Positions 1,964 through 63,839 of a stretch of 64,000 nucleotides of DNA are shown here, in pieces. The notes beneath the pieces were generated by a model. It did no database searches. It had not been told where the DNA came from and saw only the letters and a list, made by a program, of their open reading frames with translations. The translations under genes and the position numbers were made by a program. Location: the NCBI RefSeq assembly GCF_019753045.1, contig NZ_JAIELN010000005.1:62001-126000 (forward strand), in the 5' to 3' direction. This DNA comes from Hyphomicrobium sp. GTDB lineage: Bacteria; Pseudomonadota; Alphaproteobacteria; Rhizobiales; Hyphomicrobiaceae. How positions within the stretch are numbered: position 1 is the first letter of the stretch; each line of letters starts with the position of its first letter.

Positions 1964-2007
1964 GCGGGCCGCGCGTCTTCCCCCGAGACGCCGGCCCGCT
2001 TTTTTTT
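1964..2007 (+). terminator. Rho-independent terminator
   Basis: A GCGGGCC / GGCCCGC outer stem and a GCGTCT / AGACGC inner stem close on a C-rich loop, followed by eight T (2000-2007). It lies between the BTLCP gene and the convergent carbonic anhydrase gene and would end the rightward transcript. The T8 is followed directly by nine G, a homopolymer junction prone to sequencing error. Confidence 0.8.
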
Positions 2008-2060
2008 GGGGGGGGGCCGGTTCCTGCAAACTCGGTCAACGAGCTTTTAACGTCGGAATT

Positions 2061-2591: not shown

Positions 2592-2603
2592 TCTGATCGG
2601 GCT

Positions 2604-2819
2604 CTAGACGCCTTCGAGGTCCATATCGAGGATCGCCATCTGAAATTGATAGGACGTCTCGCCCTCTTCGACTTCACGATAAAGCGTCGCGACGAACTCG
2701 CCATTGATGAAGACTTCTGCCATGTCGTCTTTCTTCGGCTGCGGCTTGATTTCGAGGCTGGTGGCGCCGAACGTTTTGCGCAGATACGACTGCAGGCGTG
2801 CGAGTTCTTCTTTCTTCAA
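2604..2819 (-). CDS. DUF3126 family protein
   Basis: A 71-residue acidic protein matching the small alphaproteobacterial DUF3126 family in length and pattern: N-terminal helix with a KKEEL...LRKTFG stretch, then a two-strand segment with FINGEFVATLYR. The function of the family is unknown. It sits 21 bases after cysE and 12 bases before the carbonic-anhydrase gene on the same strand, so one mRNA is likely. No signal peptide or membrane segment is present. Confidence 0.8.
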   Translation of the reverse strand: MKKEELARLQSYLRKTFGATSLEIKPQPKKDDMAEVFINGEFVATLYREVEEGETSYQFQMAILDMDLEGV

Positions 2820-2840
2820 TGTCTTTCTCCTGAACGAATT

Positions 2841-3668: not shown

Positions 3669-3901
3669 GTCTTGCCTCTAACACGGAATGAGGGCCTGGA
3701 GACCCGCGTATGCACACGCGAACCGGTCCAAATTAGCAACAGGCGAATTAACGCCAGCGTAAACCCCGGTCAATCGATCGGGCGATTAACATATACACTT
3801 TCTCGCCGCCGCGTGCATCTGCCGCCCTGGCCCCGGTTTGCGGGCCGTTTTATTGCGCCTTAGATGGCCGCCGGAATACCGGAATAGAAGGATCAAGACG
3901 C

Positions 3902-4705
3902 ATGGCTCAGGCCGCGGAAGTCGCCAACCCGACGCTGCGATATGTCAAGGACGGGGGCATTGGCTGGATCACGGCCGACAATCCGGCACGGATGAACGCG
4001 CTCACGGCCGCCATGTGGGAGGCTATTCCAGGTGCAGTCGCGGAAGCCGTTGCCGATCCAGACGTCCGGGTCGTCATTTTGCGCGGCGCGGGCGACAGGG
4101 CCTTTTCGGCCGGCGCCGATATTTCCGAATTCGAAAGTTCCAGGACCGGGAATGCCGCCCAGATCTACGACACGTTGAACGACAACGCCTTCAACGCCCT
4201 CATCGACTGCGCCAAGCCGACGATTGCCATGATCCATGGATTTTGTCTCGGCGGCGGACTTGGCCTTGCTCTCTGCTGCGATATGCGGATTGCGGACGAT
4301 GCGAGCCAGTTCGCCATTCCGGCGGCCAAGCTTGGGATTGGCTACAATGCACGCTGGGTGCGGCCGATCCTTGCCGCTATCCCGGCGGCGCGCGCCAAGG
4401 AACTCTTATTCACTGGACGCCGTTTCCGCTCCGCCGATGCAGAGGCGATGGGCCTCGTTTCGCAACTCGTGACGACGGCCGAACTCGAGGCGACCGTCAG
4501 GGCGCTGGCGCTGGAAATTGCCGCGAACGCGCCTTTGTCCGTTGCGGCCGCGAAGCAGGTGATCGACGAAATCTCACGTCATCCCGAGAATCCCGATATG
4601 GACCGCCTCGATGCCGCCGTCGCTGCCTGTTTCGAAAGCGAAGACTATGCCGAAGGCCGCCGGGCATTTCTTGAAAAGCGCAAGCCAGTATTCAAGGGCA
4701 AATGA
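3902..4705 (+). CDS. Crotonase-fold protein lacking both catalytic glutamates
   Basis: A 267-residue enoyl-CoA hydratase/isomerase superfamily protein. The CoA-binding and oxyanion-hole elements are present (SAGADI near 69-74 and the GGG at 117-119). Aligned by eye to rat crotonase, the two hydratase glutamates are absent: Glu144 corresponds to Gly121 (GGGLGLAL) and Glu164 to Ala141 (IPAAKLG). It is therefore unlikely to be an ordinary hydratase; decarboxylase, hydrolase or ligand-binding roles are possible. A deacetylase gene begins within 14 bases of its stop, so the two may share a transcript, though their functions are not obviously connected. Confidence 0.85.
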   Translation: MAQAAEVANPTLRYVKDGGIGWITADNPARMNALTAAMWEAIPGAVAEAVADPDVRVVILRGAGDRAFSAGADISEFESSRTGNAAQIYDTLNDNAFNALIDCAKPTIAMIHGFCLGGGLGLALCCDMRIADDASQFAIPAAKLGIGYNARWVRPILAAIPAARAKELLFTGRRFRSADAEAMGLVSQLVTTAELEATVRALALEIAANAPLSVAAAKQVIDEISRHPENPDMDRLDAAVAACFESEDYAEGRRAFLEKRKPVFKGK

Positions 4706-4718
4706 TTTGACCGAGCGC

Positions 4719-5822
4719 ATGACCTGGTTTCGCATTCTTGGTTCCGTGGCCGTCGTCTCCTTGACGGCGACGGCTGCATGGGCAGGCGACAAGACATTGC
4801 TCGAGGCGTGTTTTTCGCCGTCTGCACTCGCAGCCGTTCAGGGCGAAGAGACGATCACAAAGGGCAATCGATCTTTCGATGCTCAGATCAAAATCAAGGG
4901 CTTTACGCCTGCCTCTCCCGTTGCCGATGCGCTCCGCGGCGCGATCCGTCGCGTCAACCTTCCGCCCGGCGAGAAAGCGATTGCGCTGACGTTCGACCTT
5001 TGCGAGCAACGTGGAGAAATCGCCGGTTACGACGGGCGAATTTTCGACTATTTGCGGCAGCAGGGCGTCAAGGCAACGTTCTTTGCGGGCGGAAAGTGGA
5101 TGGTTTCACATCAGCAGCGCACCGCACAGCTGATGGCCGATCCATTGTTCGAAATCGGCAATCACACCGAAACGCATGCGAACCTTCGCCTGTTGCAACC
5201 CGCTGCCGTGAACCAGCAGGTGCTCGCTCCGCAAAAGGCATATGAAGACGCACGCAGCCGCTTCGGTGCGCAACAATGCGTTGCGTCGTCATCGCCGGAC
5301 TCGATGAGCCGCATTCCAGTGCAACCGACGCTTTTTCGCTTTCCCTATGGGGCCTGCAATGATGCGTCGATGAAAGCCGTCAACGATGCGGGCATGCTTG
5401 CGATCCAATGGGACGTCGCCACGGGCGATCCCGATCCGCATGAATCCGCTGCCCGGATTGCGCAAGCGATGGTGAACGAAGCGAAGCCCGGCTCGATCAT
5501 CGTCAATCACGCGAACGGGCGGGGCTGGCACACTGCCGAAGCGCTCGCGATCGCTATTCCGAAGCTGAAGGCCAAGGGCTATAAATTCGTGACGGTCAGC
5601 GAATTGATGACAATGGGCAAACCAGTGATCACGTCCGAATGCTACGATCGCAAGCCCGGCGACACCAATCGCTACGACTTCCTCGGCGCTCTGCAGCATC
5701 CGCTGAATTCGACGGCCAAGAACGCCTCCGACAAGAACGGGGCGACCGCCGCCGCTTCGTCCCCGTCCAAATCAAAGACAGCCAAAAGCACTTTGCAGAA
5801 CCCCCTGGCGACCGATAACTGA
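4719..5822 (+). CDS. Secreted polysaccharide deacetylase (NodB fold)
   Basis: A 367-residue exported protein with a signal peptide (hydrophobic 5-20, AWA site at 20-22) and a NodB domain from about residue 85. Motif 1 is T91-F-D93-L-C-E rather than TFDDG, so the usual second Asp, a metal ligand, is Leu; motif 2 is H149-T-E-T-H153. The segment GYDGRIFDYL and the later FRFPYGA are typical of a branch of the family. The substrate is unknown. The tail after about 330 is rich in Ser, Ala and Lys. An in-frame TTG at 4707 behind AAGGG is an alternative start. The gene ends one base before the GNAT start. Confidence 0.85.
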   Translation: MTWFRILGSVAVVSLTATAAWAGDKTLLEACFSPSALAAVQGEETITKGNRSFDAQIKIKGFTPASPVADALRGAIRRVNLPPGEKAIALTFDLCEQRGEIAGYDGRIFDYLRQQGVKATFFAGGKWMVSHQQRTAQLMADPLFEIGNHTETHANLRLLQPAAVNQQVLAPQKAYEDARSRFGAQQCVASSSPDSMSRIPVQPTLFRFPYGACNDASMKAVNDAGMLAIQWDVATGDPDPHESAARIAQAMVNEAKPGSIIVNHANGRGWHTAEALAIAIPKLKAKGYKFVTVSELMTMGKPVITSECYDRKPGDTNRYDFLGALQHPLNSTAKNASDKNGATAAASSPSKSKTAKSTLQNPLATDN

Positions 5823-5823
5823 G

Positions 5824-6321
5824 ATGACGGGAGCCGACACACTGCCGGTCTCCCCTCGCGCGGTGACGTTCGAGCCGATGACGGCCGAGGCGGCGCAAAG
5901 CCTCGGAGCGGCGCTGGCGCAAATCGATCCGTGGGCGCGCTACGAGTACACGGGCGAGACGCTCGCCGCGTTCCTTGCGGGCGAGGAGCCGGGTGCACAG
6001 CGTTTCCAGATCATCGTCGATGGCGTGCTCGCGGGTGCAATTGTCATCCGGAGCAATTGGCTCCGGGGATCCTATCTGCAGTTTCTCGGAATCCTGCCGG
6101 CGTTCCATCGCCAGGGCGTCGGGCGCTCAGCGCTATTGTGGTTCGAGCGCGGCTCCGAGGCGAGCGGCGCCCGCAATCTCTGGGTCGTCGCTTCCGATTT
6201 CAATGCCGGCGCGCAGGCCTTCTACGAACGGCATGGCTTCGCTCGCATCGGGATAATCGACGGGCTCGTTGCCGACGGCGCCGGAGAAATTCTTTTTCGA
6301 AAACGGCTAACGATTGGTTGA
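5824..6321 (+). CDS. GNAT family N-acetyltransferase
   Basis: A 165-residue Gcn5-related acetyltransferase. The acetyl-CoA pyrophosphate loop is visible as HRQGVGRSAL, preceded by the strand LQFLGILPAF, and the C-terminal FYERHGFARIG motif is present. The ATG lies one base after the deacetylase stop, which implies translational coupling. The acceptor is not identifiable from sequence; the pairing with a deacetylase hints at an envelope-sugar substrate, but this is speculation. Confidence 0.85.
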   Translation: MTGADTLPVSPRAVTFEPMTAEAAQSLGAALAQIDPWARYEYTGETLAAFLAGEEPGAQRFQIIVDGVLAGAIVIRSNWLRGSYLQFLGILPAFHRQGVGRSALLWFERGSEASGARNLWVVASDFNAGAQAFYERHGFARIGIIDGLVADGAGEILFRKRLTIG

Positions 6322-7001
6322 GGCGGCGAACGCAGCGCGGCTGAGTTGCCTGGACCGCTAACGAGCCGTTGATACCTCTGAGCCTCCTTGCCGGCGTACG
6401 CCACTAACGTCGTGGTGAATGCAAGCAATTAATTTTGGATCGTTATTGTGCGGCGCATCTCAACCATTCCGCAGTTATGACGGGATGCGATCCATCCTCA
6501 TGCTCATCGCGACAACCGCGCATTTGCAGGGCTTTTTGAAGAGAGCGCCCCATCGCCACGAGAGCTGCGGTCTTTGCTTATGGTTTCAGCCGTCGGCGAT
6601 GCGCGGAGATTATTCGATTCAACGGTGACGCCGCTTCTGCGACGCAAAATGCTTTTTGCTTGTCAGCGATGTCGGCTGTTGCATAGCTTCCGGCGGACGC
6701 TTCGAAGAAAGCGAGACGAATTCCAAGGCCTTCACAAGGGGGGGCCAGTGGCAAGGCTCTGCAGGGCGAATTAACTCTCTTGCGGTATGATTGTCGTTTG
6801 GATTTCGTGGAACTGGTCGTGCTCGGGACCCATTGAGAGCGACCGTCTGGAGGAAATGCCTGAAACAGTAATCCCACGCACGATGCTCCAAGGAGCCAAC
6901 GAGACGGGGGACTATTTCTGGGATGTCTGGCGCGAGCCAAACGACCATACGGCGCGGGACCGAAAAGCGGACCGCGCCGATTTTTTTGGCCAGACGAGCC
7001 C
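6322..7001. other. 680-base gap without a supported gene
   Basis: Several overlapping open frames exist on both strands (for example 6419-6628 plus and 6578-6940 minus), but none has a recognisable family, a clear ribosome site or a composition distinct from the other frames. Nothing resembling a tRNA, small-RNA terminator or repeat was seen. It separates the rightward GNAT gene from the end of the leftward methionine operon. Confidence 0.4.
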
Positions 7002-9713
7002 TCAGGCGGCCGCGGCTCTGGCGGACCGTTCGTAGTTCAAAACGGGGGCGAGCCAACGCTCCGCTTCTTCGACAGTCCATCCCTTGCGAGCCGCGTAATC
7101 CTCGACCTGATCCCGCTCCACCTTGCCAACACCGAAATAGTGGCTTTCGGGATTTGCGAAATAAAGCCCCGAAACGGATGAACCGGGCCACATCGCGTAG
7201 CTCTCGGTCAACGTGATGCCGGTGGTCTTTTCAACGTCCATCAGCTTCCAGATGGTCGCCTTCTCCGTATGGTCGGGCTGGGCCGGATAGCCCGGCGCCG
7301 GGCGGATGCCTTGGTACTTCTCGAGGATCAAATCCTCGGCCGAAAGTTTTTCGGATTTCGCATGGCCCCACAGCTCCTTGCGAACCTTTTCATGCATGGC
7401 TTCGGCAAACGCCTCCGCCAAACGATCGCACAGCGCCTTCGCGATGATGCGGTTGTAGTCGTCGGTCTTTTTGATGTGACGCTCGATGGCTTCTTCTTCG
7501 CCAAGGCCCGAAGTCACGGCGAAAGCGCCTATGTAATCGGCGATCCCCGTTTCCTTCGGTGCGATGAAATCGGAAAGCGCCACGTGAGCGCGGTTGCGCG
7601 TCGGATCGCGGGCGATCTGCTGACGAAGGGTATGCAGCGTCGCCATCCCTGCGGCGCGCGTTTCGTCCGCATAGAGCGCAATATCGTCGCCGATGCTGTT
7701 CGCCGGCCAGAAGCCGACAATGCCAGATGCCGTTACCCATTTTTCGGCAACCATGCGCTTCAGCAGCGCTTGGGCGTCGTCAAAGAGCTTCTTCGCTTCT
7801 GCGCCGACTTTATTGTCGGTCAAGATTTGCGGGTAGCGGCCCGCGAGTTCCCATGTCTGGAAGAACGGCGTCCAATCGATATAGGGAACGAGCGCCGCGA
7901 GGTTGAAATTCGCGAAGGTGCGCGTGCCGAGGAAGCTCGGCTTTACCGGCTTAAACGCCTGCCAATCGATCTTGAACTTGTTGTCGCGAGCAGCCTTGAG
8001 AGTGATGCGCTGTTTGCGCGCTTCGTTGGCGAGATGGGACTCGCGAACCTTGGTGTACTCGGCTTGGATGTCCTGAACGTAAGGCGTTTTATCGGTATCC
8101 GACAGCAGCTTCGAGACCACGCCAACGGCACGGCTGGCGTCGAGAACGTAGACGGCCTGCCCACGGTTGTAGTTCGGATTGATCTTGACGGCCGTGTGCA
8201 CTTTGCTGGTCGTCGCGCCGCCAATCAACAGCGGCATCGAGAAGCCTTCGCGCTCCATCTCACCTGCTACGAAGCACATCTCGTCGAGCGACGGCGTGAT
8301 GAGACCGGACAGGCCGATCATGTCGACCTTTTCCTTCTTCGCCGTCTCGAGGATTTTCGCGGCGGGCACCATGACGCCGAGATCGATGACTTCGTAGTTG
8401 TTGCACTGGAGCACAACGCCGACGATGTTCTTACCGATGTCGTGGACGTCACCCTTGACCGTCGCCATCAGGATTTTGCCCGCGGCAGGCTTCTGGTCGA
8501 GGCCCGAGGCTTTCTTCTCGGCTTCGAGGTAGGGCTGCAGGTAAGCAACAGCCTGCTTCATGACGCGCGCCGATTTCACGACCTGCGGCAGGAACATCTT
8601 GCCGGCGCCGAAGAGATCGCCGACGACGTTCATGCCGGCCATCAGCGGGCCTTCGATGACGTGCAGCGGCTTTTCCGCCTTGGCGCGCGCCTCTTCCGTG
8701 TCGACCTCGATGAAGTCGGTGATGCCGTGAACGAGCGCATGGGTTAGCCGCGCTTCGACGGGCGCCTCGCGCCATGTGAGATCTTTTTCCTTCGCCTTCG
8801 CGCCGCCGCCGTCGCCTTTGAATTTCGGCGCGGCTTCGAGCAAGCGATCGGTTGCGTCAGCTCGGCGATTGAGGATCACGTCCTCGCAGAGTTCGCGCAG
8901 CTCCGCCGGAATGTCGTCATAGAGCGCGAGCTGACCGGCGTTGACGATGCCCATATCCATGCCAGCCTGAATGGCGTGGTAGAGGAACACCGAGTGCATC
9001 GCCTGGCGCACCGGCTCGTTGCCACGGAAGGCGAACGACAGGTTGGAAACGCCGCCCGAGATATGGACGAGCGGCATCTTCTCCTTGATCTGACGCGCGG
9101 CTTCGATGAAGGCGATGCCGTAGCTGTTGTGCTCTTCGATGCCGGTCGCGACGGCGAATATGTTCGGATCGAAGATGATGTCTTCCGGCGGAAAGCCGAC
9201 TTTCTCCGTCAGGAGTTTATAGGCGCGCTCGCAGATCGAAACCTTGCGCTCTATCGTGTCGGCTTGGCCCTCCTCATCGAATGCCATGACGACGACGGCC
9301 GCGCCGTAGCGCAACACCTTGCGTGCATGCTCGAGGAATGCGCCTTCGCCTTCCTTCATCGATATCGAATTGACGATAGCCTTGCCCTGCACGCACTTGA
9401 GGCCCGCTTCGATGACGCTCCATTTGGAACTGTCGATCATGATCGGAACGCGGCTGATGTCGGGTTCAGACGCGATCAGATTGAGGAACGTCGACATCGC
9501 CTGCTCGGAATCGAGCAAGCCTTCGTCCATGTTGACGTCGATTATCTGGGCGCCGGCTTCCACCTGCTGGCGTGCGACGGTGAGAGCTCCCGAATAGTCG
9601 TTCTGCTCGATCAGCTTCCGGAACTTGGCTGAACCCGTAACGTTCGTGCGTTCACCGACGTTGATGAAGGACTGTGCTGCGTTGGCTGTGGTCATTGTGC
9701 TCTGTTCACCCAT
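7002..9713 (-). CDS. metH: Methionine synthase, C-terminal part (pterin, B12 and reactivation domains)
   Basis: This polypeptide carries MetH without its homocysteine domain. It opens with the pterin-binding start [12 protein letters not shown], then the cobalamin cap and B12 domain with D-V-H-D-I-G (near residue 420), then the AdoMet-dependent reactivation domain with the R-x-x-x-G-Y motif in GIRPAPGYP. It completes methyl transfer from methyltetrahydrofolate through cobalamin to homocysteine with its partner encoded just upstream. ATG 9713 overlaps the upstream stop by 8 bases; ATG 9695 (MTTANAAQ) is an equally good start. The combined length of the two parts is close to that of one-piece MetH (about 1230 residues). 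Confidence 0.92.
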
Positions 9714-42401: not shown

Positions 42402-42477
42402 GGGCCCGTAGCTCAATGGTTAGAGCTGACGGCTCATAACCGTCTGGTTCCAGGTTCGAGTCCTGGCGGGCCCACCA
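42402..42477 (+). tRNA. tRNA-Met (CAU), CCA encoded
   Basis: Complete cloverleaf by eye: acceptor GGGCCCG / CGGGCCC, D arm GCTC / GAGC, anticodon stem GACGG / CCGTC with loop CTCATAA (anticodon CAT), T arm CCAGG TTCGAGT CCTGG, A73 and a templated CCA. The G1-C72 pair excludes an initiator; elongator Met is most likely, though an isoleucine tRNA with lysidine would have the same anticodon. It marks the border between core and accessory DNA, so it is the likely integration site. Confidence 0.9.
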
Positions 42478-42524
42478 ATAAAATCAATAACTTATAGGAA
42501 TCTCCCGGACCCTCGGCGGCTTCG

Positions 42525-46618: not shown

Positions 46619-48112
46619 ATGGCCTCGACGCCTTCGCCTTCGCTTCAACTCGAAATCCCAGCGGCTGGCGATTACCGCGGTCAATGGGCCGATGTCATGC
46701 AACGCCTGCTGACGCAGATCGACAAGTCGATCGCGGGCGTGACTACGATCACCACGACCGGCGGCACAATCATTCTGTCGGATACGCAGTATGTCGACAA
46801 TCAATCGCGCCAGTCGACCATCATTGTTTCTGGCGCCCTTACTGCGGACGTTGTGATCGTCGTTCCTGCACGCAACAAGCGCTACGTCCTCGTCAACAAG
46901 ACGACAGGCGGCAAGGCTATCTCGATCAAAAGCCCGACCGGAAGCCCAAAGGAATGTCCCGCGCAGGGTTCAGTCGGAATTCTCCGAGTTGCCGAGGACA
47001 ATTCGATTACCCATGCCGGCCCATATGTGGATATGGCAACCGGTGCCATCACCTCGACGAATTATGCCCTTCAATCGTCGCTTCAGTCCGAGATTAATCG
47101 CGCCAGCGCTGAAGAGGCGACGCTCATCAAGAGGGATGGCTCGCGCTCATTCACTGCCGTCGTTTCTGGCATCACGCCGACGGCAGACGCACACCTTACA
47201 ACGAAGAAGTACGTCGACGACGCGACCGGCCTCCAGGACGCGATCTTCACTACCGGCGGCACGGCGTCAGCCTTCACCGTCACTACCGGCAACAACATTA
47301 CGCCATTCGACAATATGGCGCTGTCTATTCGTCTTCATGCCACGAACAACAAGGATTGCACGCTCTCTGTCGATGGAAGCGCGGCAAAGCCCATTCGCGG
47401 CTTCACCGGGAAATCACTCTCCGCCGGCGTCGGCATCGCTGGCACACCGTATCGCGTGATCTACGTCGCCGCGACGCAGGAATGGATTTTCTCGGGCTTT
47501 TTCCAGAACCCCTATCAGATCCCGATCGGCGGCTTCCTGCCGTTCTGCTCGACCGCCGTTCCGAACAGCAACTTCATCCTGCCATTCGGTCAGGCTCTTT
47601 CGCGAACGACGTATGCAGAACTCTACAATCTCATCGGCACAGCATTCGGAGCTGGCGATGGAGCCAGCACGTTCAACGCTCCGGATCTTCGTGGCCGCAC
47701 GATCTTCGGCCTCGACAACATGGGCGGTGCTGCCGCTGGACGCCTCACGACGATCGCCGGCACGACTGTCGGCGGCGTTGGCGGTGCGGAGACGGTCGCT
47801 CTCGCTCGCTCAAACCTTCCGAACGTGCAGCTCGCCCTCAGCGGCTCGACCAGCGCATCCGGCGATCACCAGCACTTGATGGAGCCGGATTCCGCAAAGA
47901 CCGGTTCTAACGCCGCTACGCCAGGGGGCTTTTACACGTCTTCGGGTGACGCCGGCACGAGAACGCCCGCCAGCAAGTTGACTAACTTGGCCGGCAACCA
48001 CGCGCACAGCGTCAGTGGCGCGACCGAGAGCATGAACGGAGGCGTTGAGCAGACGGCGATCAACAAGCTGCCGCCGGCAATCGTGCTCCCGATGCTTCTG
48101 CGCGTGCTCTAA
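46619..48112 (+). CDS. Phage tail-collar (tail fibre tip) protein
   Basis: A 497-residue structural protein. The N-terminal 300 residues are beta-rich with GGTIIL and ADAHLTTKKYVDD segments typical of tail-fibre shafts. A tail collar domain follows (about 300-370): IPIGGFLPFC, FGQALSRTTYAELYNLIGTAFG and APDLRGRTIFGLDNMGG. The C-terminal part has His pairs in GDHQH and GNHAHS and ends in LPPAIVLPMLLRVL, like the short-tail-fibre receptor-binding tip. It is an isolated tail gene; no capsid, portal or terminase gene is present, so it is a prophage remnant or carried by the island. Confidence 0.85.
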   Translation: MASTPSPSLQLEIPAAGDYRGQWADVMQRLLTQIDKSIAGVTTITTTGGTIILSDTQYVDNQSRQSTIIVSGALTADVVIVVPARNKRYVLVNKTTGGKAISIKSPTGSPKECPAQGSVGILRVAEDNSITHAGPYVDMATGAITSTNYALQSSLQSEINRASAEEATLIKRDGSRSFTAVVSGITPTADAHLTTKKYVDDATGLQDAIFTTGGTASAFTVTTGNNITPFDNMALSIRLHATNNKDCTLSVDGSAAKPIRGFTGKSLSAGVGIAGTPYRVIYVAATQEWIFSGFFQNPYQIPIGGFLPFCSTAVPNSNFILPFGQALSRTTYAELYNLIGTAFGAGDGASTFNAPDLRGRTIFGLDNMGGAAAGRLTTIAGTTVGGVGGAETVALARSNLPNVQLALSGSTSASGDHQHLMEPDSAKTGSNAATPGGFYTSSGDAGTRTPASKLTNLAGNHAHSVSGATESMNGGVEQTAINKLPPAIVLPMLLRVL

Positions 48113-48777: not shown

Positions 48778-50604
48778 TCAATCGCCTTCAGCAATAAGCT
48801 CGCCGGTTTCATCGTCAATCTTGGCCTGCTCAAGCGCCGGTCCGAGCAATCTTTTCGTGTCGGCGCTCAATGAATATCGTCGAATGGGTGCAAGGGCCGG
48901 GATACGACCTTGTAGTTCGTGGTGCATCTCGACAAGCCATGGCTTCTCTTCAGCCAGTGACTCCGAGAGCCGTCCAGTTTGATACCGCTCCTGCAAACCC
49001 TCCAGAATTGTTCGCTGGGCTGCAGGCGACGCATCCAGCAGTGTATTGACAAACGTCTTAGGTGTAATCGCCGTCAGTACGGGATCATCGGCACAATCTG
49101 GCTTTGTGTGACTGCCAGACCAGCATACGCGGCCCCGGAATAGCTCTGCGTCCTCCGACATCGCCTCAAGTAGGCTCTTGCCCAGCGCCGGCCACGTCTC
49201 CCTATAAGCTAGACCGGACTGCTCAAAAAAGTAGTCGTAGACCGTCGTAAAGCCGGCCCGGTCGGTATCTTGGAAGCCGAGGCCGAATGCGCCGTGACGA
49301 TAATCGCGAAATGACCATCGGCGAAGCCGTCCTTCTTTCCGGAGATCATCAATATAGGCCTTCCCCTCATCTAGGACCTCAGCCTCGCTCTTTTTAAGTT
49401 CTCCGATCCGTGCCCCCCAGTTTCTCAGCCCGAGAACGTGCAAGATGACGCCTGGATCATCAAATACCCTATGCTGAAACTCTGACTCCAATCTGGCGAA
49501 TGCATTCTCAAACTCAGATGTCTCGCGCAAGAATCCGTGCCAAACTTTACGCCAATTCGGTTCCTCATCCGGCGCAACAAATGCCTCGTCTATAGACAGC
49601 GAGGCATTAGTAGTTGCGGGTTCGATTTTTCCATCACAAAGCGTTTGGATGAGCACTTCGTCGCTTAGGATGGAATCGTGAAGATAGATCCGGGGATAAC
49701 GGTCTTGGGCTATCGAAAGTGGCGTGCCTTTCTGCGCGGGATCTTTTTGTTTGATCATACTGCCTGCAACGATAGTGTCGACGCGCGACGTTAGGTGTTC
49801 CCGTTGCAATCTTCCGGCATTGACTTCTAGGGCGAGCGCGAGAAACAGTTTGAATGCCTGTTCCATCCCGGGTCGTTTTGCCCTGAGATCCGCGGCGATA
49901 ATTTTATAAACCCGCTCCCAGCATCGAAGGGATTGGTCGAGAACACGCAGGCTGTGCGTTTCGGACTGAGCAAAGATGTCCAGGATCGAGTTGAAATTTT
50001 GAGTAAGGAAATCTCTAGCGCCCTCGTCGCCTATGTTTGCAATAAAATGCATAAGAGCCGGAGGCACATCTTCAATCAGCGAGAAGGTAATCCCTATGAC
50101 TTTCTCACGGACACGAAGGTATTTTTCCTTTTCGAGGATCTCGACTTCGTTGGCAATAATGAGGACTCGACGCCCTTCATGCTCGACAAACGTATTGATG
50201 AAGGCGAGGACTTCGTCCGGCGGTAGGACGGCCCGTTCGAGGTCATCAAAAACTATTAAGTCGCAGAAGTTGTCAGGTAGCCAAGAGGTTGCATCGGCGG
50301 CTGTTCCGCTTCCGATACGTCGATAGATGGCCTTTGCAAGCTGGGTACCTAGTTTGGCGTATTTGTTATCTTTGACCGGGGCGAGCGCGGCGAGCAAAGA
50401 GAACGCGATATCGTCGGTTGATTTGGCGCCATACAGACTGACGTAGGCAATTTTTTTGCCGTTTGCCTTCAGCTTCTGCAGATGATTTTTGACGTTAAAT
50501 GATTTGCCAATGCCCCATGGACCATTGACCATCACCGCATAGTGGGGTGGGTGCGAAAGGCCCAGATAGTAGTCGAGATATTCGAATATATGTCCGTTGC
50601 TCAT
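48778..50604 (-). CDS. KAP-like P-loop NTPase
   Basis: A 608-residue soluble protein. Walker A is G28-PWGIGKS35 and Walker B is LIVFDDLERA with D120-D121, both in the N-terminal 180 residues, the arrangement of KAP P-loop NTPases. There is no transmembrane insertion. The long C-terminal part (about 230-608) has no recognised motif and may be a sensor or effector. KAP NTPases are common in bacterial defence loci. It is divergent from the 92-residue and TIR-like genes, with 174 bases holding the dyads between. Confidence 0.75.
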   Translation of the reverse strand: MSNGHIFEYLDYYLGLSHPPHYAVMVNGPWGIGKSFNVKNHLQKLKANGKKIAYVSLYGAKSTDDIAFSLLAALAPVKDNKYAKLGTQLAKAIYRRIGSGTAADATSWLPDNFCDLIVFDDLERAVLPPDEVLAFINTFVEHEGRRVLIIANEVEILEKEKYLRVREKVIGITFSLIEDVPPALMHFIANIGDEGARDFLTQNFNSILDIFAQSETHSLRVLDQSLRCWERVYKIIAADLRAKRPGMEQAFKLFLALALEVNAGRLQREHLTSRVDTIVAGSMIKQKDPAQKGTPLSIAQDRYPRIYLHDSILSDEVLIQTLCDGKIEPATTNASLSIDEAFVAPDEEPNWRKVWHGFLRETSEFENAFARLESEFQHRVFDDPGVILHVLGLRNWGARIGELKKSEAEVLDEGKAYIDDLRKEGRLRRWSFRDYRHGAFGLGFQDTDRAGFTTVYDYFFEQSGLAYRETWPALGKSLLEAMSEDAELFRGRVCWSGSHTKPDCADDPVLTAITPKTFVNTLLDASPAAQRTILEGLQERYQTGRLSESLAEEKPWLVEMHHELQGRIPALAPIRRYSLSADTKRLLGPALEQAKIDDETGELIAEGD

Positions 50605-50732: not shown

Positions 50733-50778
50733 ATCGGTCAGGTGCTTATGCAGGCGCTAATGCCGTGGAGGGATGAAA

Positions 50779-51057
50779 ATGAGCGGGATCGAGGATTTTG
50801 CTGAACTGGGTCGGATGTTTGGGGATGCTGGGAAAGCTATCGAGGGACTCGATGGCGAACTCGGAACTGTGAGTTTCGACCCTCATGATCCCTCAAGTAT
50901 CGAAAAGGCGATATCCGATCTCGAACGCATAATCGATGAACGCGTGGGCCCGCATTCCAACAACGCGCTTATCACGCAAATCGTTGAGGATCTCAAAGAG
51001 ACCTATCGCCAAGGAATTTTGGACCAAGCTGCAGCGGCGCGATTGAATCCCGAGTGA
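50779..51057 (+). CDS. Small partner protein of the TIR-like gene
   Basis: A 92-residue acidic helical protein from ATG 50779, chosen because a GGAGG site lies 7 bases upstream (an ATG at 50773 abuts the site). It has no known motif. Its stop overlaps the next gene's GTG (GTGA), implying coupled translation. It could be an adaptor, an inhibitor or an antitoxin of the TIR-like protein. Confidence 0.6.
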   Translation: MSGIEDFAELGRMFGDAGKAIEGLDGELGTVSFDPHDPSSIEKAISDLERIIDERVGPHSNNALITQIVEDLKETYRQGILDQAAAARLNPE

Positions 51058-51959
51058 GGAAAATGTCAGACGACCCCGAACTCTTTGACCAAATTAATAA
51101 CGCCGTTTTGGATCTGCAAACGGCAGAATTTCAGTCCTATGAACGTCCGTTACGACGGTTGGGTACGTTGCTGCGGCATGAGGCTTTGGCCAACATCAAT
51201 CAAAGTCTGACCGACGGGCTCGATCTCGACGGATTTCTGAACGAAAGTTTTGCTACACAGGGGGGCATGATTGGAAGTGCGCGCCTAGCATGGCCCGATG
51301 AGCCTAAAAAGGTACTTGGCTTGACGCTGCTGCTCGTTGAGCGGTTTGCGGACTCTCCGGAATGGATTCAGGACTTCGGGCACACGTACTATTACACGGG
51401 CCGTAAGATTATGGGTGACGTGCGCGCAGTCGTGTCGCAATTGATCATTCCCTTTGTTCGGGACTACCGCAGCTATGTCGTACGTCAGGGAAGAATTACA
51501 GCGGTGATGAGAACACCTGCACCGCGTAAGGTGTTCATCGTCCACGGCCACGACCACCAAGCGTTGTGGGAAGTGGCGCGTTTTTTGGAGCACAGTGAAT
51601 TTGAAACTGTCATCCTCCAGGAACGCGCGAGCCAGAGCCGCACGATCATTGAAAAGATCGAGGCAAATCGAGATGTTGGATTTGCGGTAGTGATCTTGAC
51701 CCCCGACGATGAAGGTTGCGCCAAGGGCGAAACTCTGGCACCGCGAGCGCGGCAAAACGTTTTGCTAGAACTCGGGTATTTTATGGCTCATTTGCAGCGT
51801 GAACGCGTGTGTGTGTTGATGCGTGGCCGCGTGGACGTACCGACGGATTTTGCTGGCGTGATTTGGATAGATATGGATACGGCGGGCGGCTGGAAGTTAC
51901 GGCTTGGTCGGGAGCTAAGAGCCGCGGGCTACGAGCTTGATCTCAACAAGGCCGCCTAG
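51054..51959 (+). CDS. TIR-like NAD-hydrolase candidate (CAP12/Pycsar-type TIR domain)
   Basis: A 301-residue protein. The N-terminal half is helical and unknown. The C-terminal half (about 160-301) matches the nucleotide-binding TIR-like domain PF10137: KVFIVHGHDHQALWEVARFL, then VVILTPDDEG and RARQNVLLELGYF, where Glu239 occupies the place of the catalytic NADase glutamate. Members act as NAD-depleting effectors in Pycsar and CBASS systems; no cyclase gene is visible here. An ATG at 51063 is an alternative start. Confidence 0.8.
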   Translation: MRKMSDDPELFDQINNAVLDLQTAEFQSYERPLRRLGTLLRHEALANINQSLTDGLDLDGFLNESFATQGGMIGSARLAWPDEPKKVLGLTLLLVERFADSPEWIQDFGHTYYYTGRKIMGDVRAVVSQLIIPFVRDYRSYVVRQGRITAVMRTPAPRKVFIVHGHDHQALWEVARFLEHSEFETVILQERASQSRTIIEKIEANRDVGFAVVILTPDDEGCAKGETLAPRARQNVLLELGYFMAHLQRERVCVLMRGRVDVPTDFAGVIWIDMDTAGGWKLRLGRELRAAGYELDLNKAA

Positions 51960-57252: not shown

Positions 57253-58422
57253 CTACTTGTCCGGCACATGCAAGGACATTGTGAAGATGAGCGTACCATC
57301 GACTCCCCGCGCCGAGACCTCTTTCACAGCGCCAAGTGGGGCGTCGTTTTCAAACGTCATAAGAAAGTCCTTTACTGCTCGCATGGCCAGCGTCGGCGTC
57401 GCTTTCGTTGCGGGATAGTTCATGCGGAATTGGCCTTTTCGGTCGAAGCCCTCGCCGCGATTTCTGTAGGTGAATGTCACGTGAACCACGTACTTTGCTC
57501 CTGCCTCAAATGCGCGTTGCTGGTGTGCACGCACCACGGAGTCATCCCATAATGGTTCGGCAAACGTGAACGCGATTTTCTCGGTGATCATCATTGCGAC
57601 CAAGGCGAGTGCTTCGGCCTCCTCCTGCCGGTCTGGATGCCAAGCGCTTGGCTTCTTCAGATTACCGTGAAAGTAGTGGCCGCGTTTTTCCACCAATTCG
57701 CCGATCAAGGATTTTGGGGTGTTGAACGTCGCCAAGAATGCGCGCTCAGGTTCAGAAACTAACCGATCCGCCTTTCCCTTTTGGATCACCATCTCGATCG
57801 CGCCTAAAAATACCTCGTTTTCACTAAGTGCACCCTTGAGAGCCTCGCTCTTGAACTTTCCGCCTCCGTAAAGCGATTCAAATAGCATGAACGAATACCG
57901 GAACGAGTCGATGTATCGCCGGTCGAGCAACTCTCGCCGCGCAAAATCGGTTAGTGTTGCCGTGAAATCCGGGTCGCCTGATGTGAGGTCGGCTGCGAGC
58001 ACCGCACGAGTGATAAAGTCGTAAGTTAGCGTAAGGGGGCGTGGTTGCCTTCTAACGCCCATCGAGAGCAGATCAATTTTGTCTTTCTCCTCATCGCTTT
58101 CGGCGATGTAGCGGATATCCACGGTCTCTATGTCGAGTTCCACATCGAACATGCACTTCAGATAGGAAAGGGTGCGCTTCATTTTGGAGTGGACGGAGGC
58201 TTTATGCATGCAGCGGTCAGTGATGCTTAGCTTTGCCGGTCCTTCGGAAAGCTCCTCCACAAGCGGTGCGCTCGTCAGCGGCTCCCCCGCGATGGACACT
58301 AGGAATGCCTTTGCGAGCTTATCCTCGACCTCAACGGAGAACTCTCCGCCAAGGGCAGCGAATGCCCAGTGGTCATCCAACTCGATCGGACGTGTAAGTG
58401 GGAAGCGAAAGATAATTTTCAT
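57253..58422 (-). CDS. HEPN-motif protein, second type
   Basis: A 389-residue protein. A beta-rich N-terminal half precedes a helical C-terminal half. R247-GHYF-H252 in VEKRGHYFHGN matches the Rx4H HEPN motif, preceded by SLIGELVEKRG. HEPN-containing ApeA-type proteins are known abortive-infection effectors, and the layout (N-terminal domain, C-terminal HEPN) recalls them, though identity is not proven. It stands between the zinc-knuckle gene and the giant NTPase; 113 bases separate it from the latter on the same strand. Confidence 0.55.
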   Translation of the reverse strand: MKIIFRFPLTRPIELDDHWAFAALGGEFSVEVEDKLAKAFLVSIAGEPLTSAPLVEELSEGPAKLSITDRCMHKASVHSKMKRTLSYLKCMFDVELDIETVDIRYIAESDEEKDKIDLLSMGVRRQPRPLTLTYDFITRAVLAADLTSGDPDFTATLTDFARRELLDRRYIDSFRYSFMLFESLYGGGKFKSEALKGALSENEVFLGAIEMVIQKGKADRLVSEPERAFLATFNTPKSLIGELVEKRGHYFHGNLKKPSAWHPDRQEEAEALALVAMMITEKIAFTFAEPLWDDSVVRAHQQRAFEAGAKYVVHVTFTYRNRGEGFDRKGQFRMNYPATKATPTLAMRAVKDFLMTFENDAPLGAVKEVSARGVDGTLIFTMSLHVPDK

Positions 58423-58535: not shown

Positions 58536-61500
58536 TCAAGCAACTAAGCCTTGTACCCGACGAAACGCCTCGTCCTGTTCGAGCGCCGCGCTGCGCCGGT
58601 CTCCAAGGTCGATCAGGGCGTCGAGGATCCTCAACAATCCCCGCGCGCGAGCTACTTCAAGGGGGTAATTCGCCTCTGCCAGGCACTGGATGATGGCAGC
58701 AAGCCGTGCGGGCAAAGACGTCCCAATCCAACTTCCCTTTGCGTATTCGATTGAATCCAACGCCGCCGTGGCTTGTTCGATAAACGCATCAATCGGGTAG
58801 GACGCGCCGGTCCGCTCGCACAAGGTCAGGAAGTTTTGCATGACGAAGGTCGACCAGCCGGTTGCTTTCATCAGCTTCGTCACGTGAGGCATGATGATTG
58901 CGATGCTGCCCCAATCGCCATTGACGAACCGCGCGGCGCCCGGACATTCAGCTTCGACGTTCACAAACAGAAGTGCCCTGATGATGCTCGGCAGATCGTG
59001 GCCGTGCACTTCGCCCGCACGATATCCGTTTGGCGAGAATGTTCTGTCGTCGATCACTCGTTGCACGCAGTCGTCCAGAATCGGCAGCGCATTGGCCGGG
59101 ATATCTTTTGCATCGAAGATATGACGACTTACGACGCTGTCCGCGAACTCTGCGAGTACGCGCAATGCTCCCTCGTTGTCCGGCGAGAACGGTTTGATCA
59201 AGTGTTCTTGAACCCATTGCAGTTCGAAAAACGGTAAGACGCGGGCAAACATGGTGCCCAACGTGTGGTCCCATTGGAAAAGATTCGTTTGTTTGTCCGG
59301 GCGTTTCTTATCGTCCCACGAAGGCATCAACCGCTCGGCGGTCCATCGCGAGAGGTCAACAAGGAGTGGTTCAATCTTCGGGCGGTAAACATCTGACCGG
59401 CACCACTCCTCAAGCGGAAAGTGGGTGAAGAGCTTGGCGGCATATTGACCGTCAAACGAGCGCTTCGGGTTGGTCCAATATTCCCCCTCCCGTCTGTTCG
59501 GCTTCGATGCCTTCACCCAAGCAGGCGGCAAAGGCGTAAACTCCTCCTCGGCTTCGACGCCAAGGGCGTGCAATGCCTTCGCGAGAACTGCCCTGCGTGC
59601 CTCACGATCTGCCGTGTCGTCACGCTCGAAGGTCTTTTCATTGCGGATCGGATCAATGTAGTGCGCAAGGTCGAACGCGAAGTGCGCGGCCACCCACTTC
59701 ACATGCGGGTCTGGGCCAAAATAGAGGGCTTGGAAAGCCATGAGCTGCACATCCTCGTTCGGATGGCTCGCGAGCTGCATCAGGCTGACTGACGATTCTG
59801 AACGGGGCGCGCCGCTCTTGCAGTCGTGGAATAGCGCGGAAATAACATGGAAGGCAGGATGCCATGGAATCTTTGACCCATGGAAATCTTTGGGCTCGCG
59901 CATTTTCACAACGCGCTCCACCGCGGTCCATGCCCATGGCCGATCCGATGAATCGATGTCAGAAAATCGGATAACGCACGCGGCGATAGCGGAGACGCCG
60001 CTTTGGATCGCGTGGGGCCCAACATCGGCGCGCTCATCGAACAGGTCGCTACGGTCGTGCTTCTTAGCGTAGTCGATAGCCTTTTCTAACGTCCATCCCT
60101 CGACAGGCTTCCCCTCATTCAAGGATTTGATTGCCCAATTGAGCACACGGTTTTGGCCCAATGATTCAGTGGCCTTGGCGGCTTTCTCTTGTGTGGCTTC
60201 GGGCAGCGGTTTCGGCGGCTCATAGCCTATGGCGACTTGATCGCCTTCCATATCGTACCGTCGATAATTTTCGATATTGCCGAGACCAGACCAGAGTTCG
60301 GCCTTCTCCTTCAACTCCTGGGTACCCTGGGCGTCTTCGCGTTCTTCTTCGACGATGTAGGGGAGGTTTTCCGGGAAAGCCTCAAGCGCCTTCTTGAAAC
60401 GATCCCGCAGGCTCATGTCACCGCTGATGGCAAAATGCTTCGCGAGTTCGCGCACATCGTGTTTGCGATATTCACGGCTTTCGAGAAACGCCTTCGCCTT
60501 GGCCTTCTCGCCTGTCAATTTCGTGAGGAACCCGAGCCCGAATAGGTCGATGTCCTTCTGCGGCTCTTGGAGAAGGCGCGCCATGTCATGCTCCCAAAGG
60601 CGCTGGCACGTGACGATGGGCAGTGTGGTTTCCGAGACCTCGAACGTTTCGATGGCGAGGCGCAAGCAAAGACCCAGCGATGCGTAACACTCACTGCCTT
60701 CAAGGATTTGCTTGATTACGTCGCTGGCGGAGCGGCCTTTCTCGATCTCCTTGAACGCCCAATAGGCGAGCGAAAGATAGGCGCACTGGAGAAGCTCCGA
60801 GCCAAGCATTCCAAGACCCCAGCCGAAGACGTGCCAATCTCCCCAGAACTCCTGCCGCCCCCACGGGAAATCAAGCACGACAGGGATCGGCGTGCCGCGT
60901 TCGCGGCGGTGGAATCTATGGATTTGATGCCAGCCGGTGGTCGCATGGTTCGTAAGCTTCTTGATGAGGCGAAGTCCTACCGCGGAACTCTTCGTTAGCA
61001 GACTGGCGAAGGGTTCGTGGAGCGCTGACGAAGGGTAGAAATAATGATTGTGGGCTTCGAGGCCGATATTATCCAAATCGAAATCTGACATGCTTGTCGG
61101 GAAGTTGATCGACGACAACGCCATGTTTTGCTGATGCGTGCGTTTCTCTTCGGGAATTGCTCTAAGCTTTTCGCGCCACTTGGCCTGCTCTTCTTCTTCG
61201 CGACGTCGGCGGTCATACTCATCTTGCGGCAACTCCTGCAGGAGTTTGGCCGCAGCGACCTTTTCAACCGCCTCCGGTTCGACTTCCGCCATGATCGGCG
61301 TAAAGCCCACGAGATCGTCGAATGCGGACCGCAGCATGCGCTCGTCGCCAGCAGCACGCTCGAAAAGAGCGACGGCGAACTCGGGATAGCCACGGGCGGA
61401 GCGGAGGATGATGCTACGCAGTCCTATTGCGAGGCTCTTCTGCGCTTCGCTGCCGAGTACGTCCCATTTGCCGCAAGGGCGCGAATAGACCTCGGCATAA

Positions 61501-63839
61501 ATCTCGGCTTCGAGATCGATCAGCCACGCACTGCACGTGGCCAGAATCTCCTTCGAGCGCTTGTTCTTAAAATCAGAGAGAATGTTCTGCCAAACGCCGA
61601 AGACTTCGAGCGCCTGCGGAACGAGACGCGCCGGGAGCGTCTGGTGTCGCGCGATGATCCAATCAATGAAGCGTCCCCATGCTTCCCCGTCCGAAGGCCA
61701 TCCCATGAGATCGGCCATGCTCATAGTGTTCATGCCTTCGATCTTGATGCCCCGTTGCAAAATGATGGGACTTGGCACGGTGTGCTGCGCCTGAAACCAC
61801 ACCAACAGCTTTTCGCACAAGGCAAAGTCGTCGGCCTCCACACGTTGTGTGAACTCCTCGATGGCCTTCTCGAAGGCGTTCGTAAACGGCGGTGCCGTGA
61901 GCCATTCGCGCCGCCATTGGGCACGCAACGAAGAGCTATCAAGCTGGGATAAACCGGCGGTCCATCGACCCGTTTCGGTAAGCGCGTCTTGAGCCAGCAA
62001 ACCCACCACGCGACCAAGCAATGGCGGCTCGCCTGCGGCGGTAAGCGCCGAAGGCCATTTGTCGCCAAGCTCGATGAGCAGGCGGAAGAAAACCCATTCA
62101 AAGAATATATCGTGCGTGAATGACACCATCGCGCCTGCGCGCTCAAGACGCACAATGTGATCCGCCTGAAGCGCTGCCAGTTGCGCGACGGTCTCCGGTT
62201 CGAGAGCGCGGACTAAGATTTCCTTGCCGAGATTACGCACGCCTTTTTCAGCAAGATCGATAAGCGCGCGCTGACGTTGCGGCACCGTTTCAGCCATCGC
62301 GTCGTGTCCGGCACGCAGCCACCACGCGTTGATCAAATCAGCTTCGGTTTTCGGCTCGGCGTCCTGCGGAAGGGCTTTGGCCAGAACCGCTGCAAAAAAC
62401 GGACGCCGGGCGATCTGCTCCACCGCGCGGCTGGGGCTGAAAAGGAGTCGGCGGAGATGAGGCTTAGATTTGGCAAGGAGTTCGGCCTCCTCCTCGGAAA
62501 ACCCCTTGACAGAAACGCTGCCCATACCCTTCGCGGAATAAAACGGTCGGGGAAACCAATTCCGGTAGGCTTCGAGACCTTGATCGCGCGAGCTGGCGAG
62601 TACCTTCCAGTGCTGGAGACTTGGGTCGGCCTCAATGGCGCGGATGAGATCGGTGATGATGTGTTGTTGGTCTGGCCGGATACGATCGATGCCATCGATG
62701 AAGAGGATGGGCGTACCTGAAGCACCGATTTCAGCGAGAAGATCGGGCACGTTGGTGTGGCGCAGACCGAGCGATGTCGCAAACGTCGTCCAGCTCGTTC
62801 CTTGCAACCGGTCGTTTTTGAGAAAGAGGATCGGACCCGACTTCGCCGCGTTGGCTGCAAAGTGCTTCAGTACGGCTGACTTGCCGCAACCCGGCAGGCC
62901 GCCGATGGAAACAACGCGATGCCTCTCAAGCTGCTGCGCGACTTCCGCCTGCAAACCGTCGCGCGCGACATGAAAATCATCAACAGATTCGGAAACATCG
63001 TTGAGGGCATCGAGCGATGCGGTGTTCAGCCGATTGATGTCGTCGCTGAAGTTCGGTGCCACTTTGAGACGCACAGAACCTTTCAGTTGGGCGAGCAAGG
63101 AGGATCGCGTCCATTTGGTTGCGTTTGCTGCGCCTTCGCGCGCGATGCGGCAAAGGCGGTCAAAAAGAAGGATGTCTTGACCGTCCACATTATCTGCGAT
63201 GAGCTCTTGCAGGCGATTGACGATCTCGGCGCGGAGCGCCCCGCCTTCGTCCAAACCTGCCAGGTGGAGCGCTACAAAGTTCCGGTAGAAGCTTACTTCC
63301 TCATCCAGATTTGCTGCGTTGATTACAATCCGTAGGGCTTCTCGTAATTTCTTATCGTCGGCTCCTGCCGTGCCTGTCGGCGCGAAGTATTGTTCGAAGT
63401 CCTTGGCGTCAGGGCTCGCCTTCGCCTTGCCGATCAGCCGCGAAAGGCTTCGGAAGGTCGCATCCGTGACATGCTCAACGACAATCCCGCTCGCGTCCGT
63501 TCCCTTGCCAAAGGTCTCGCATCCTTGCGTCTTCACAGCCGCCGCGATGATCTCTTTGAATTTCTCGTCAGCGCCGCTGATCGTGACGGAGCGTTTGACC
63601 TGAAGATCGATCGCTTTTTTTGTCCCGGCATCGTCCAGCCCGACGATGACGTCATCCATCGGATGGCCGTGACCTTGCCGTTGAACTGCGACGCTAGCGA
63701 CAATGCCGGGCTGGCCAGCCGCGCGCTCATGCCGGAGCAAATGCGCGAGATAATAGGCGACAACCGTGTCTTCATATGTGAACCCCGCACCGCCGGTCAG
63801 TTCGGTGGAGGCTGGTTTCTGATTAAGTGTGTCGTTCAA
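58536..63839 (-). CDS. Giant Cap4-like nuclease / STAND NTPase (Avs-like)
   Basis: A 1767-residue protein, apparently from a TTG start with an AGGA site. The N-terminus (about 15-105) resembles Cap4/DUF4297-type PD-(D/E)xK nucleases: GFTYEDTVVAYYLAHLL, D62-D63 in MDDVIV and Q80-V-K82 in LQVKRS. A STAND NTPase core follows, with Walker A GGLPGCGKS (K320), Walker B LFIDGID (D382, D385) and H576-D577 in SFTHDIFFEWVF. A C-terminal region of about 1150 residues, with a charged stretch near 915-950, could be the sensor. This order matches Avs anti-phage proteins, which bind phage proteins and then cut DNA. Nuclease, ATPase and target are inferred. Confidence 0.7.
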   Translation of the reverse strand: MNDTLNQKPASTELTGGAGFTYEDTVVAYYLAHLLRHERAAGQPGIVASVAVQRQGHGHPMDDVIVGLDDAGTKKAIDLQVKRSVTISGADEKFKEIIAAAVKTQGCETFGKGTDASGIVVEHVTDATFRSLSRLIGKAKASPDAKDFEQYFAPTGTAGADDKKLREALRIVINAANLDEEVSFYRNFVALHLAGLDEGGALRAEIVNRLQELIADNVDGQDILLFDRLCRIAREGAANATKWTRSSLLAQLKGSVRLKVAPNFSDDINRLNTASLDALNDVSESVDDFHVARDGLQAEVAQQLERHRVVSIGGLPGCGKSAVLKHFAANAAKSGPILFLKNDRLQGTSWTTFATSLGLRHTNVPDLLAEIGASGTPILFIDGIDRIRPDQQHIITDLIRAIEADPSLQHWKVLASSRDQGLEAYRNWFPRPFYSAKGMGSVSVKGFSEEEAELLAKSKPHLRRLLFSPSRAVEQIARRPFFAAVLAKALPQDAEPKTEADLINAWWLRAGHDAMAETVPQRQRALIDLAEKGVRNLGKEILVRALEPETVAQLAALQADHIVRLERAGAMVSFTHDIFFEWVFFRLLIELGDKWPSALTAAGEPPLLGRVVGLLAQDALTETGRWTAGLSQLDSSSLRAQWRREWLTAPPFTNAFEKAIEEFTQRVEADDFALCEKLLVWFQAQHTVPSPIILQRGIKIEGMNTMSMADLMGWPSDGEAWGRFIDWIIARHQTLPARLVPQALEVFGVWQNILSDFKNKRSKEILATCSAWLIDLEAEIYAEVYSRPCGKWDVLGSEAQKSLAIGLRSIILRSARGYPEFAVALFERAAGDERMLRSAFDDLVGFTPIMAEVEPEAVEKVAAAKLLQELPQDEYDRRRREEEEQAKWREKLRAIPEEKRTHQQNMALSSINFPTSMSDFDLDNIGLEAHNHYFYPSSALHEPFASLLTKSSAVGLRLIKKLTNHATTGWHQIHRFHRRERGTPIPVVLDFPWGRQEFWGDWHVFGWGLGMLGSELLQCAYLSLAYWAFKEIEKGRSASDVIKQILEGSECYASLGLCLRLAIETFEVSETTLPIVTCQRLWEHDMARLLQEPQKDIDLFGLGFLTKLTGEKAKAKAFLESREYRKHDVRELAKHFAISGDMSLRDRFKKALEAFPENLPYIVEEEREDAQGTQELKEKAELWSGLGNIENYRRYDMEGDQVAIGYEPPKPLPEATQEKAAKATESLGQNRVLNWAIKSLNEGKPVEGWTLEKAIDYAKKHDRSDLFDERADVGPHAIQSGVSAIAACVIRFSDIDSSDRPWAWTAVERVVKMREPKDFHGSKIPWHPAFHVISALFHDCKSGAPRSESSVSLMQLASHPNEDVQLMAFQALYFGPDPHVKWVAAHFAFDLAHYIDPIRNEKTFERDDTADREARRAVLAKALHALGVEAEEEFTPLPPAWVKASKPNRREGEYWTNPKRSFDGQYAAKLFTHFPLEEWCRSDVYRPKIEPLLVDLSRWTAERLMPSWDDKKRPDKQTNLFQWDHTLGTMFARVLPFFELQWVQEHLIKPFSPDNEGALRVLAEFADSVVSRHIFDAKDIPANALPILDDCVQRVIDDRTFSPNGYRAGEVHGHDLPSIIRALLFVNVEAECPGAARFVNGDWGSIAIIMPHVTKLMKATGWSTFVMQNFLTLCERTGASYPIDAFIEQATAALDSIEYAKGSWIGTSLPARLAAIIQCLAEANYPLEVARARGLLRILDALIDLGDRRSAALEQDEAFRRVQGLVA

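What the first reader, a model, noticed from the sequence alone, without database searches (positions are those of the whole stretch)
58536..63839. Candidate Avs-like Cap4-STAND NTPase of 1767 residues
Seen: a D62/D63...Q80-x-K82 nuclease-like N-terminus, an intact Walker A/B pair, an HD dipeptide in the expected winged-helix position and a C-terminal region of over 1100 residues with no recognised motif. Known: Avs proteins combine Cap4-type nucleases with STAND ATPases and C-terminal sensors. Inference: a defence protein whose C-terminus detects an unknown phage component.
Basis: partly seen in the sequence, partly recalled or inferred. Interest (0 to 1): 0.85.

Follow-up and report, generated by a model that had tools for sequence, protein, structure and literature searches.

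The report
Nuclease-armed relative of Avs4 sensor
This large bacterial protein looks like an immune receptor that senses a phage part through an Avs4-type sensor and then cuts DNA with a different nuclease domain from the one known in Avs4, so it is a new combination of known defence parts.

Summary
The ORF is real: one intact 1767-aa gene on the MINUS strand (58536-63839, TTG start), changing mostly at third codon positions, with 22 relatives in intact long frames among 27 genome loci fetched. The three-part reading holds. (1) The N-terminus has the predicted layout of a PD-(D/E)xK nuclease; D62, D63, Q80 and K82 are invariant in 27 of 27 aligned N-termini of this type. It is Cap4-like, but no Cap4 profile matches it. 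(2) A STAND/NACHT ATPase follows (K320, D382, H576, D577 invariant in 22 of 22 rows). (3) The C-terminus is an alpha-solenoid homologous to the Avs4 sensor: its profile alone finds only Avs4 (8dgf) with significance in the PDB (E 5.8e-7), and its predicted fold matches Avs4 bound to phage portal best (E 7e-17; next unrelated 5.5e-5). So the likely trigger is the phage portal, not an unknown component. Three relatives carry the ATPase and sensor with other or short N-termini. The gene has no conserved neighbour and lies in a 32.4-kb tRNA-Met island with TIR and KAP defence candidates. Best reading: an Avs4-like sensor with a different nuclease, a new variant of a known kind. Portal binding and nuclease activity are inferred.

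The parts
58536..63839 (-). whole gene, 1767 aa, TTG start, candidate single-gene defence protein
63090..63839 (-). residues 1-250 (cut chosen by me): PD-(D/E)xK nuclease-like effector domain, Cap4-like motif D62 D63 ... Q80-x-K82
   Evidence: predicted layout helix 22-36, strands 46-52, 64-70, 73-84, helix 92-105, strand 116-123; D62, D63, Q80 and K82 invariant in 27 of 27 rows of this type; no Pfam Cap4 hit
62040..63089 (-). residues 251-600 (cuts chosen by me): STAND/NACHT ATPase with winged-helix HD motif
   Evidence: Pfam AAA 6.4e-5 over its cut-off, NACHT 1.5e-4 under its cut-off; Foldseek Avs4, Avs3, NLRP9, NLRP3, NLRC4; K320, D382, H576 and D577 invariant
58539..62039 (-). residues 601-1767: alpha-solenoid sensor homologous to the Avs4 portal sensor
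   Evidence: AlphaFold2 of residues 596-1767, pLDDT 85; Foldseek Avs4 E 7.3e-17; profile vs PDB Avs4 E 5.8e-7; hhalign vs a full Avs4 E 2.3e-6 over 825 columns

Best explanation
A one-protein, NLR-like antiphage receptor of the Avs kind. Its C-terminal solenoid, homologous to the sensor of Avs4, most likely recognises the phage portal protein made during infection. Recognition lets the central STAND ATPase bind ATP and oligomerise, which brings the N-terminal PD-(D/E)xK domains together so that they cut DNA and stop phage production at the cost of the cell. Shown here: architecture, conserved motifs, homology of ATPase plus sensor with Avs4, other N-termini on the same ATPase and sensor in three relatives, placement in a mobile island with other defence candidates. 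Inferred: portal as ligand, oligomerisation, DNA cleavage, abortive infection.
For: Family profile (22 rows) vs PDB: Avs4 8dgf E 8e-16, in three collinear stretches, of which the middle one is not significant on its own. Profile of residues 596-1767: Avs4 E 5.8e-7, the next hit 2.5. Foldseek of that region: Avs4 7.3e-17, TM 0.62 by query length over 1246 columns; next unrelated 5.5e-5 at TM 0.27. Foldseek of residues 1-620: Avs4 first, Avs3, then animal NLRs. NCBIfam Avs4 model hit by 22 of 22 members scanned. Two other large STAND proteins match the ATPase profile (6e-17, 8e-7) but not the sensor profile (E 0.16, 0.03). HDI-x-x-EW is shared with Avs4. Effector residues invariant in 27 of 27. 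TIR (PDC-S35) and KAP (PDC-S49) defence candidates lie in the same island, and defence genes flank some relatives. Patchy presence: full-length match in 3 of 100 related genomes including this one, in 0 of 21 other genomes of the genus.
Against: Identity to Avs4 is only 12-18% and the Avs4 equivalog score is 65.6 against a cut-off of 1500, so the ligand need not be the same. TM 0.62 with rmsd 7.9 shows a shared fold, not a shared binding face. No contact residues could be mapped. The nuclease is recognised by no Pfam or PDB profile, and no activity is known.
Confidence: 0.7

Rival explanations
1. Same architecture, but the sensor has shifted to another phage protein (for example the large terminase, as in Avs1-3, or a different structural protein).
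For: Sequence identity of the sensor to Avs4 is very low; more than one trigger is reported for an Avs2 and for Avs5 (PMC12724215 and PMC12931631, passages seen).
Against: The sensor fold is nearest to Avs4 by nearly 12 orders of magnitude in E-value; Avs3, a terminase sensor, appears in the search with residues 1-620 but not among the 50 matches listed for the sensor. 22 of 22 members hit the Avs4 model and no other Avs model; whether NCBIfam holds models of Avs1-3 was not checked.
Confidence: 0.22
2. A PDC-M54-type candidate defence system with a required second gene, rather than a stand-alone receptor.
For: PADLOC PDC-M54A matches residues 17-593 (E 1.4e-21); a 389-aa gene of unknown family follows on the same strand 113 bp downstream.
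Against: The 389-aa protein has no tblastn match (E <= 1e-3) in any of 31 loci of relatives, nor do seven of the eight other neighbours tested; the one match was a 24% integrase hit in L023. Some of those loci hold little flank.
Confidence: 0.05
3. The N-terminal domain is not a DNA nuclease but a PD-(D/E)xK-fold domain with another role.
For: No Pfam nuclease hit and no PDB match by the N-terminal profile.
Against: D62, D63, Q80 and K82 kept in 27 of 27 N-termini of this type, on the strands where such nucleases have their catalytic residues (layout; the rule is recalled); match to the PADLOC model DUF626_VIII at E 1.6e-8 over residues 12-267, which does not itself give a function.
Confidence: 0.1

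Closest known systems
Avs4 (AVAST type 4), PDB 8dgf
   Same: STAND ATPase with HDI-x-x-EW and a C-terminal alpha-solenoid sensor, homologous by sequence profile and by fold
   Different: 12-18% identity; N-terminal effector not matched to that of an Avs4 (E 0.39; Avs4's N-terminus is Mrr-like by recall, with a weak Mrr_cat_2 hit at E 0.098); far below the Avs4 equivalog cut-off
PADLOC candidate PDC-M54A
   Same: effector plus ATPase match over residues 17-593
   Different: the match ends at residue 593; no conserved partner gene found
Avs2 (recalled as Cap4-type nuclease plus STAND plus terminase sensor)
   Same: Cap4-like D...QxK effector in front of a STAND ATPase
   Different: sensor is of Avs4 kind; the only Avs model that any of the 22 members hit in NCBIfam is Avs4
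Cap4 / PF14130 nuclease
   Same: order of motifs GG, F-x-Y, D, Q-x-K lines up in profile comparison
   Different: not significant (best E 0.049 against 0.22 for the best of 15 column shuffles); no Pfam hit

Membership tests
Avs4 (AVAST type 4) | score over the NCBIfam equivalog cut-off | tested here: not met
   65.6 bits against 1500
Avs4 (AVAST type 4) | STAND ATPase plus sensor homologous to the portal sensor | tested here: met
Avs4 (AVAST type 4) | Mrr-like N-terminal nuclease (recalled) | tested here: not met
   N-terminal profile does not match a full Avs4 (E 0.39); no Mrr hit
Avs4 (AVAST type 4) | activation by phage portal protein | not testable with these tools
   needs co-expression or binding assay
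STAND/NACHT NTPase | Walker A, Walker B and winged-helix HD with NACHT-like fold | tested here: met
   the Pfam NACHT score alone (22) is under its cut-off of 26.7
Cap4 nuclease (PF14130) | match to the family profile | tested here: not met
   no hit
Cap4 nuclease (PF14130) | PD-(D/E)xK layout with D...QxK | tested here: met
Cap4 nuclease (PF14130) | significant profile-profile or fold match of the isolated domain | tested here: inconclusive
   hhalign E 0.17 and 0.049; Cap4 6wan rank 37 for residues 1-620; isolated domain not folded
PDC-M54 (PADLOC) | M54A protein with a conserved partner gene | tested here: not met
   partial M54A match, the downstream gene not found in 31 loci of relatives; that PDC-M54 has more than one gene is recalled from its naming, and its partner was not itself looked for outside PADLOC scans of the neighbours

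The most novel reading that the evidence does not exclude
This clade is a distinct Avs type in which one Avs4-kind portal sensor has been rearmed more than once: a Cap4-like nuclease in most members found, and other or short N-termini in L022, L025 and L027, one of them behind a metallo-beta-lactamase gene as (by recall) in Avs1. The sensor is the conserved part and the weapon is exchangeable.
Probability: 0.55. Interest if true: 0.5.

Novelty: new variant of a known kind. Interest (0 to 1): 0.45.

Why it matters
It turns an anonymous 1767-residue protein into a testable claim: portal sensing of the Avs4 kind would reach well beyond proteins that pass the Avs4 family cut-off, and would be coupled to different effectors. 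It also offers a family with 22 intact members fetched here, from several proteobacterial classes and a Desulfovibrio, for mapping which sensor surface is kept.

Tried and rejected
PF14130 in the own genome: none; in 297 genomes of the order: 11 have a match, this one not. phmmer of the single protein against the PDB: nothing up to E 10; profiles were needed. The N-terminal profile alone against the PDB: nothing up to E 10. BFVD fold search of the sensor: no match at E <= 0.001. The 389-aa downstream gene as a partner: rejected. A trypsin-like effector in L022 was suspected by eye; neither Pfam nor the PDB supports it, so it stays a lead. A sigma-70 scan around the start found no site.

Empty site: the left flank of the island is found in the other genomes of the genus, but the right flank has only matches of about 40-65 bases, in 3 of 21 others, so an empty site was not shown.

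Literature: nine searches. Judged from the listings, none of the papers describes this protein family; searches returned none. Of the papers listed, only passages of PMC12931631 and PMC12724215 were seen. The Avs4 structure paper is not held.

Weak controls. Defence context: 113 proteins (112 flanking genes from 25 loci, L010 left out as a near-copy, plus the window's 389-aa protein; only 140-700 aa, nearest three on each side) hit 169 PADLOC families at 1e-10, of which 25 were shown, against 9 families for 34 backbone proteins of the window. Counts per protein were not given and many models overlap. The two STAND proteins used as sensor controls (L086, L087) were fetched because they had matched only around the ATPase, so they are not a blind control. 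L084, another STAND protein, does match part of the sensor.

Full report
What is there. The ORF at 58536-63839 is on the minus strand and encodes 1767 residues from a TTG start. An AGGA lies four bases before the start; no sigma-70-like site was found in the scanned stretch. It is a real, selected gene: relatives at 77-85% identity differ mostly at third codon positions. A scan of genome contigs returned 27 loci; 22 carry an intact long frame, five (L003, L004, L020, L021, L024) are broken or short. Two more sit in viral-contig records, one of them frame-broken. A tblastn search of plasmids found 23 records, six covering at least 80% of the query.

Effector. I cut the protein at 250/251 and 600/601; these borders are mine, set from the alignments and models. 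AlphaFold2 of residues 1-620 on 19 sequences gives pLDDT 86 and, in the first 125 residues, the order helix, three strands, helix, strand expected of PD-(D/E)xK nucleases (the fold name is my reading). D62, D63, Q80 and K82 are identical in 27 of 27 rows of this N-terminal type, including relatives of about 25% identity, and the same D-D...Q-x-K pattern is present in seven further relatives checked, one of them (L034) in the piece before its stop. The label Cap4 is not proven: no PF14130 hit in the window protein or in the N-termini of seven distant relatives (among ten proteins), and hhalign against nine PF14130 domains gives E 0.17 or, with more diverse rows, 0.049, where 15 column shuffles gave 0.22 at best. 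The motifs fall in register in that alignment. PADLOC's DUF626_VIII model matches residues 12-267 at 1.6e-8; that this is a retron VIII protein is recalled.

ATPase. Pfam gives AAA 6.4e-5 (over its cut-off) and NACHT 1.5e-4 (under its cut-off). Foldseek of residues 1-620 lists Avs4, Avs3 and then NLRP9, NLRP3 and NLRC4. K320, D382, D385, H576 and D577 are invariant in 22 of 22 rows of the family alignment.

Sensor. This is the main correction. AlphaFold2 of residues 596-1767 on 22 sequences gives an almost all-alpha solenoid with pLDDT 85. Its best PDB match is Avs4 bound to PhiV-1 portal, E 7.3e-17 over 1246 columns; the next, unrelated solenoid is at 5.5e-5. Without any structure, the profile of this region alone has Avs4 as its only significant PDB hit (E 5.8e-7, the next 2.5), and the full profile gives 8e-16. 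A bona fide Avs4 from another genome (L080; the one genome of 398 over the cut-off) aligns with the family over residues 287-1629 (E 6.4e-14). Two other large STAND proteins match the ATPase profile but not the sensor profile (L086: 6e-17 against 0.16; L087: 8e-7 against 0.03); they had been fetched as ATPase-only matches, so this is a consistency check rather than a blind control. A third, L084, matches part of the sensor (2.1e-9). Published statements seen: Avs1-3 target the large terminase and Avs4 the portal (PMC12724215, passages); Avs1-4 effector nucleases cut phage and host DNA (PMC12931631, passages).

Exchange of effectors. L022, L025 and L027 have the ATPase and sensor (25-36% identity by region) but not the nuclease motif. 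L025 has only about 56 residues before the ATPase; the N-termini of the three show no convincing similarity to each other or to the window's (best E 0.75). In a 40-row tree of ATPase plus sensor they fall among nuclease-bearing rows, L025 with L026 (96), and L022 and L027 with L019 (99); the branches with high support force at least two changes of the label. The tree is of the quick kind and has long branches (L080, L084, L092 and others), and the shuffle test (500 of 500 as low) gives no support with three rows, so this is a lead, not proof. L022 follows a metallo-beta-lactamase gene that matches LmuA and Avs1a models.

Place. The gene lies in an island of 32,437 bp between two exact 41-bp copies of the tRNA-Met 3' end: window 42438-42478, and G000:C2:136834-136874, beyond the window. 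A tyrosine integrase lies next to the far copy. Two of the 21 other genomes of the genus have a second copy of the repeat, exact in G010 and 91% in G001, about 26 and 13 kb from the tRNA site, so the site may be an integration hotspot; an empty site was not shown. The island also holds a TIR protein (PDC-S35, 2.2e-63) and a KAP NTPase (PDC-S49, 1.9e-160). Full-length relatives occur in 3 of 100 related genomes including this one (one of the three has an internal stop), and in 0 of 21 other genomes of the genus; three more of the 100 match around the ATPase only. Around relatives there are integrases, resolvases, relaxases and genes matching Shedu, Septu, JetD, pAgo and BREX models, among ordinary genes such as SmpB and ribosomal L21.

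Verdict. The most likely mechanism is portal-triggered, ATPase-gated DNA cleavage, as in Avs4, with a different nuclease. The ligand and the activity remain to be tested.

Noticed in passing
window 42402-42478 and G000:C2:136834-136874: tRNA-Met with an exact 41-bp repeat of its 3' end 32.4 kb away, marking an integrative island that runs past the window's end; two other genomes of the genus show second copies about 13 and 26 kb from the same tRNA.
   Followed up: partly
G000:C2:104555-104613 and 136931-136990: The stretch shortly after each copy of the 41-bp repeat is alike (87% over about 60 bases); short matches to it also lie in G001, G003 and G015. Unexplained.
   Followed up: no
window 51054-51959 (+) and 50773-51057 (+): CAP12/Pycsar-type TIR protein (Pfam E 8.2e-36, PDC-S35) preceded by a 94-aa ORF that overlaps its start by 4 bases.
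   Followed up: no
window 48778-50604 (-): KAP-family NTPase, near full-length match to the PADLOC candidate PDC-S49 (1.9e-160).
   Followed up: no
window 46619-48112 (+): Phage tail collar domain protein inside the island.
   Followed up: no
window 57253-58422 (-): 389-aa protein with no Pfam, PADLOC or NCBIfam hit, co-directional and 113 bp downstream; not found beside relatives.
   Followed up: partly
L022:898-1908 and 1886-7102: Psychrobacter relative: metallo-beta-lactamase gene (LmuA, Avs1a models) overlapping a STAND gene with an Avs4-kind sensor and an unidentified N-terminus that looks trypsin-like by eye only.
   Followed up: partly
L097:10839-14145: Resolvase followed by two RepB/ParB-type genes in the far part of the island.
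   Followed up: no
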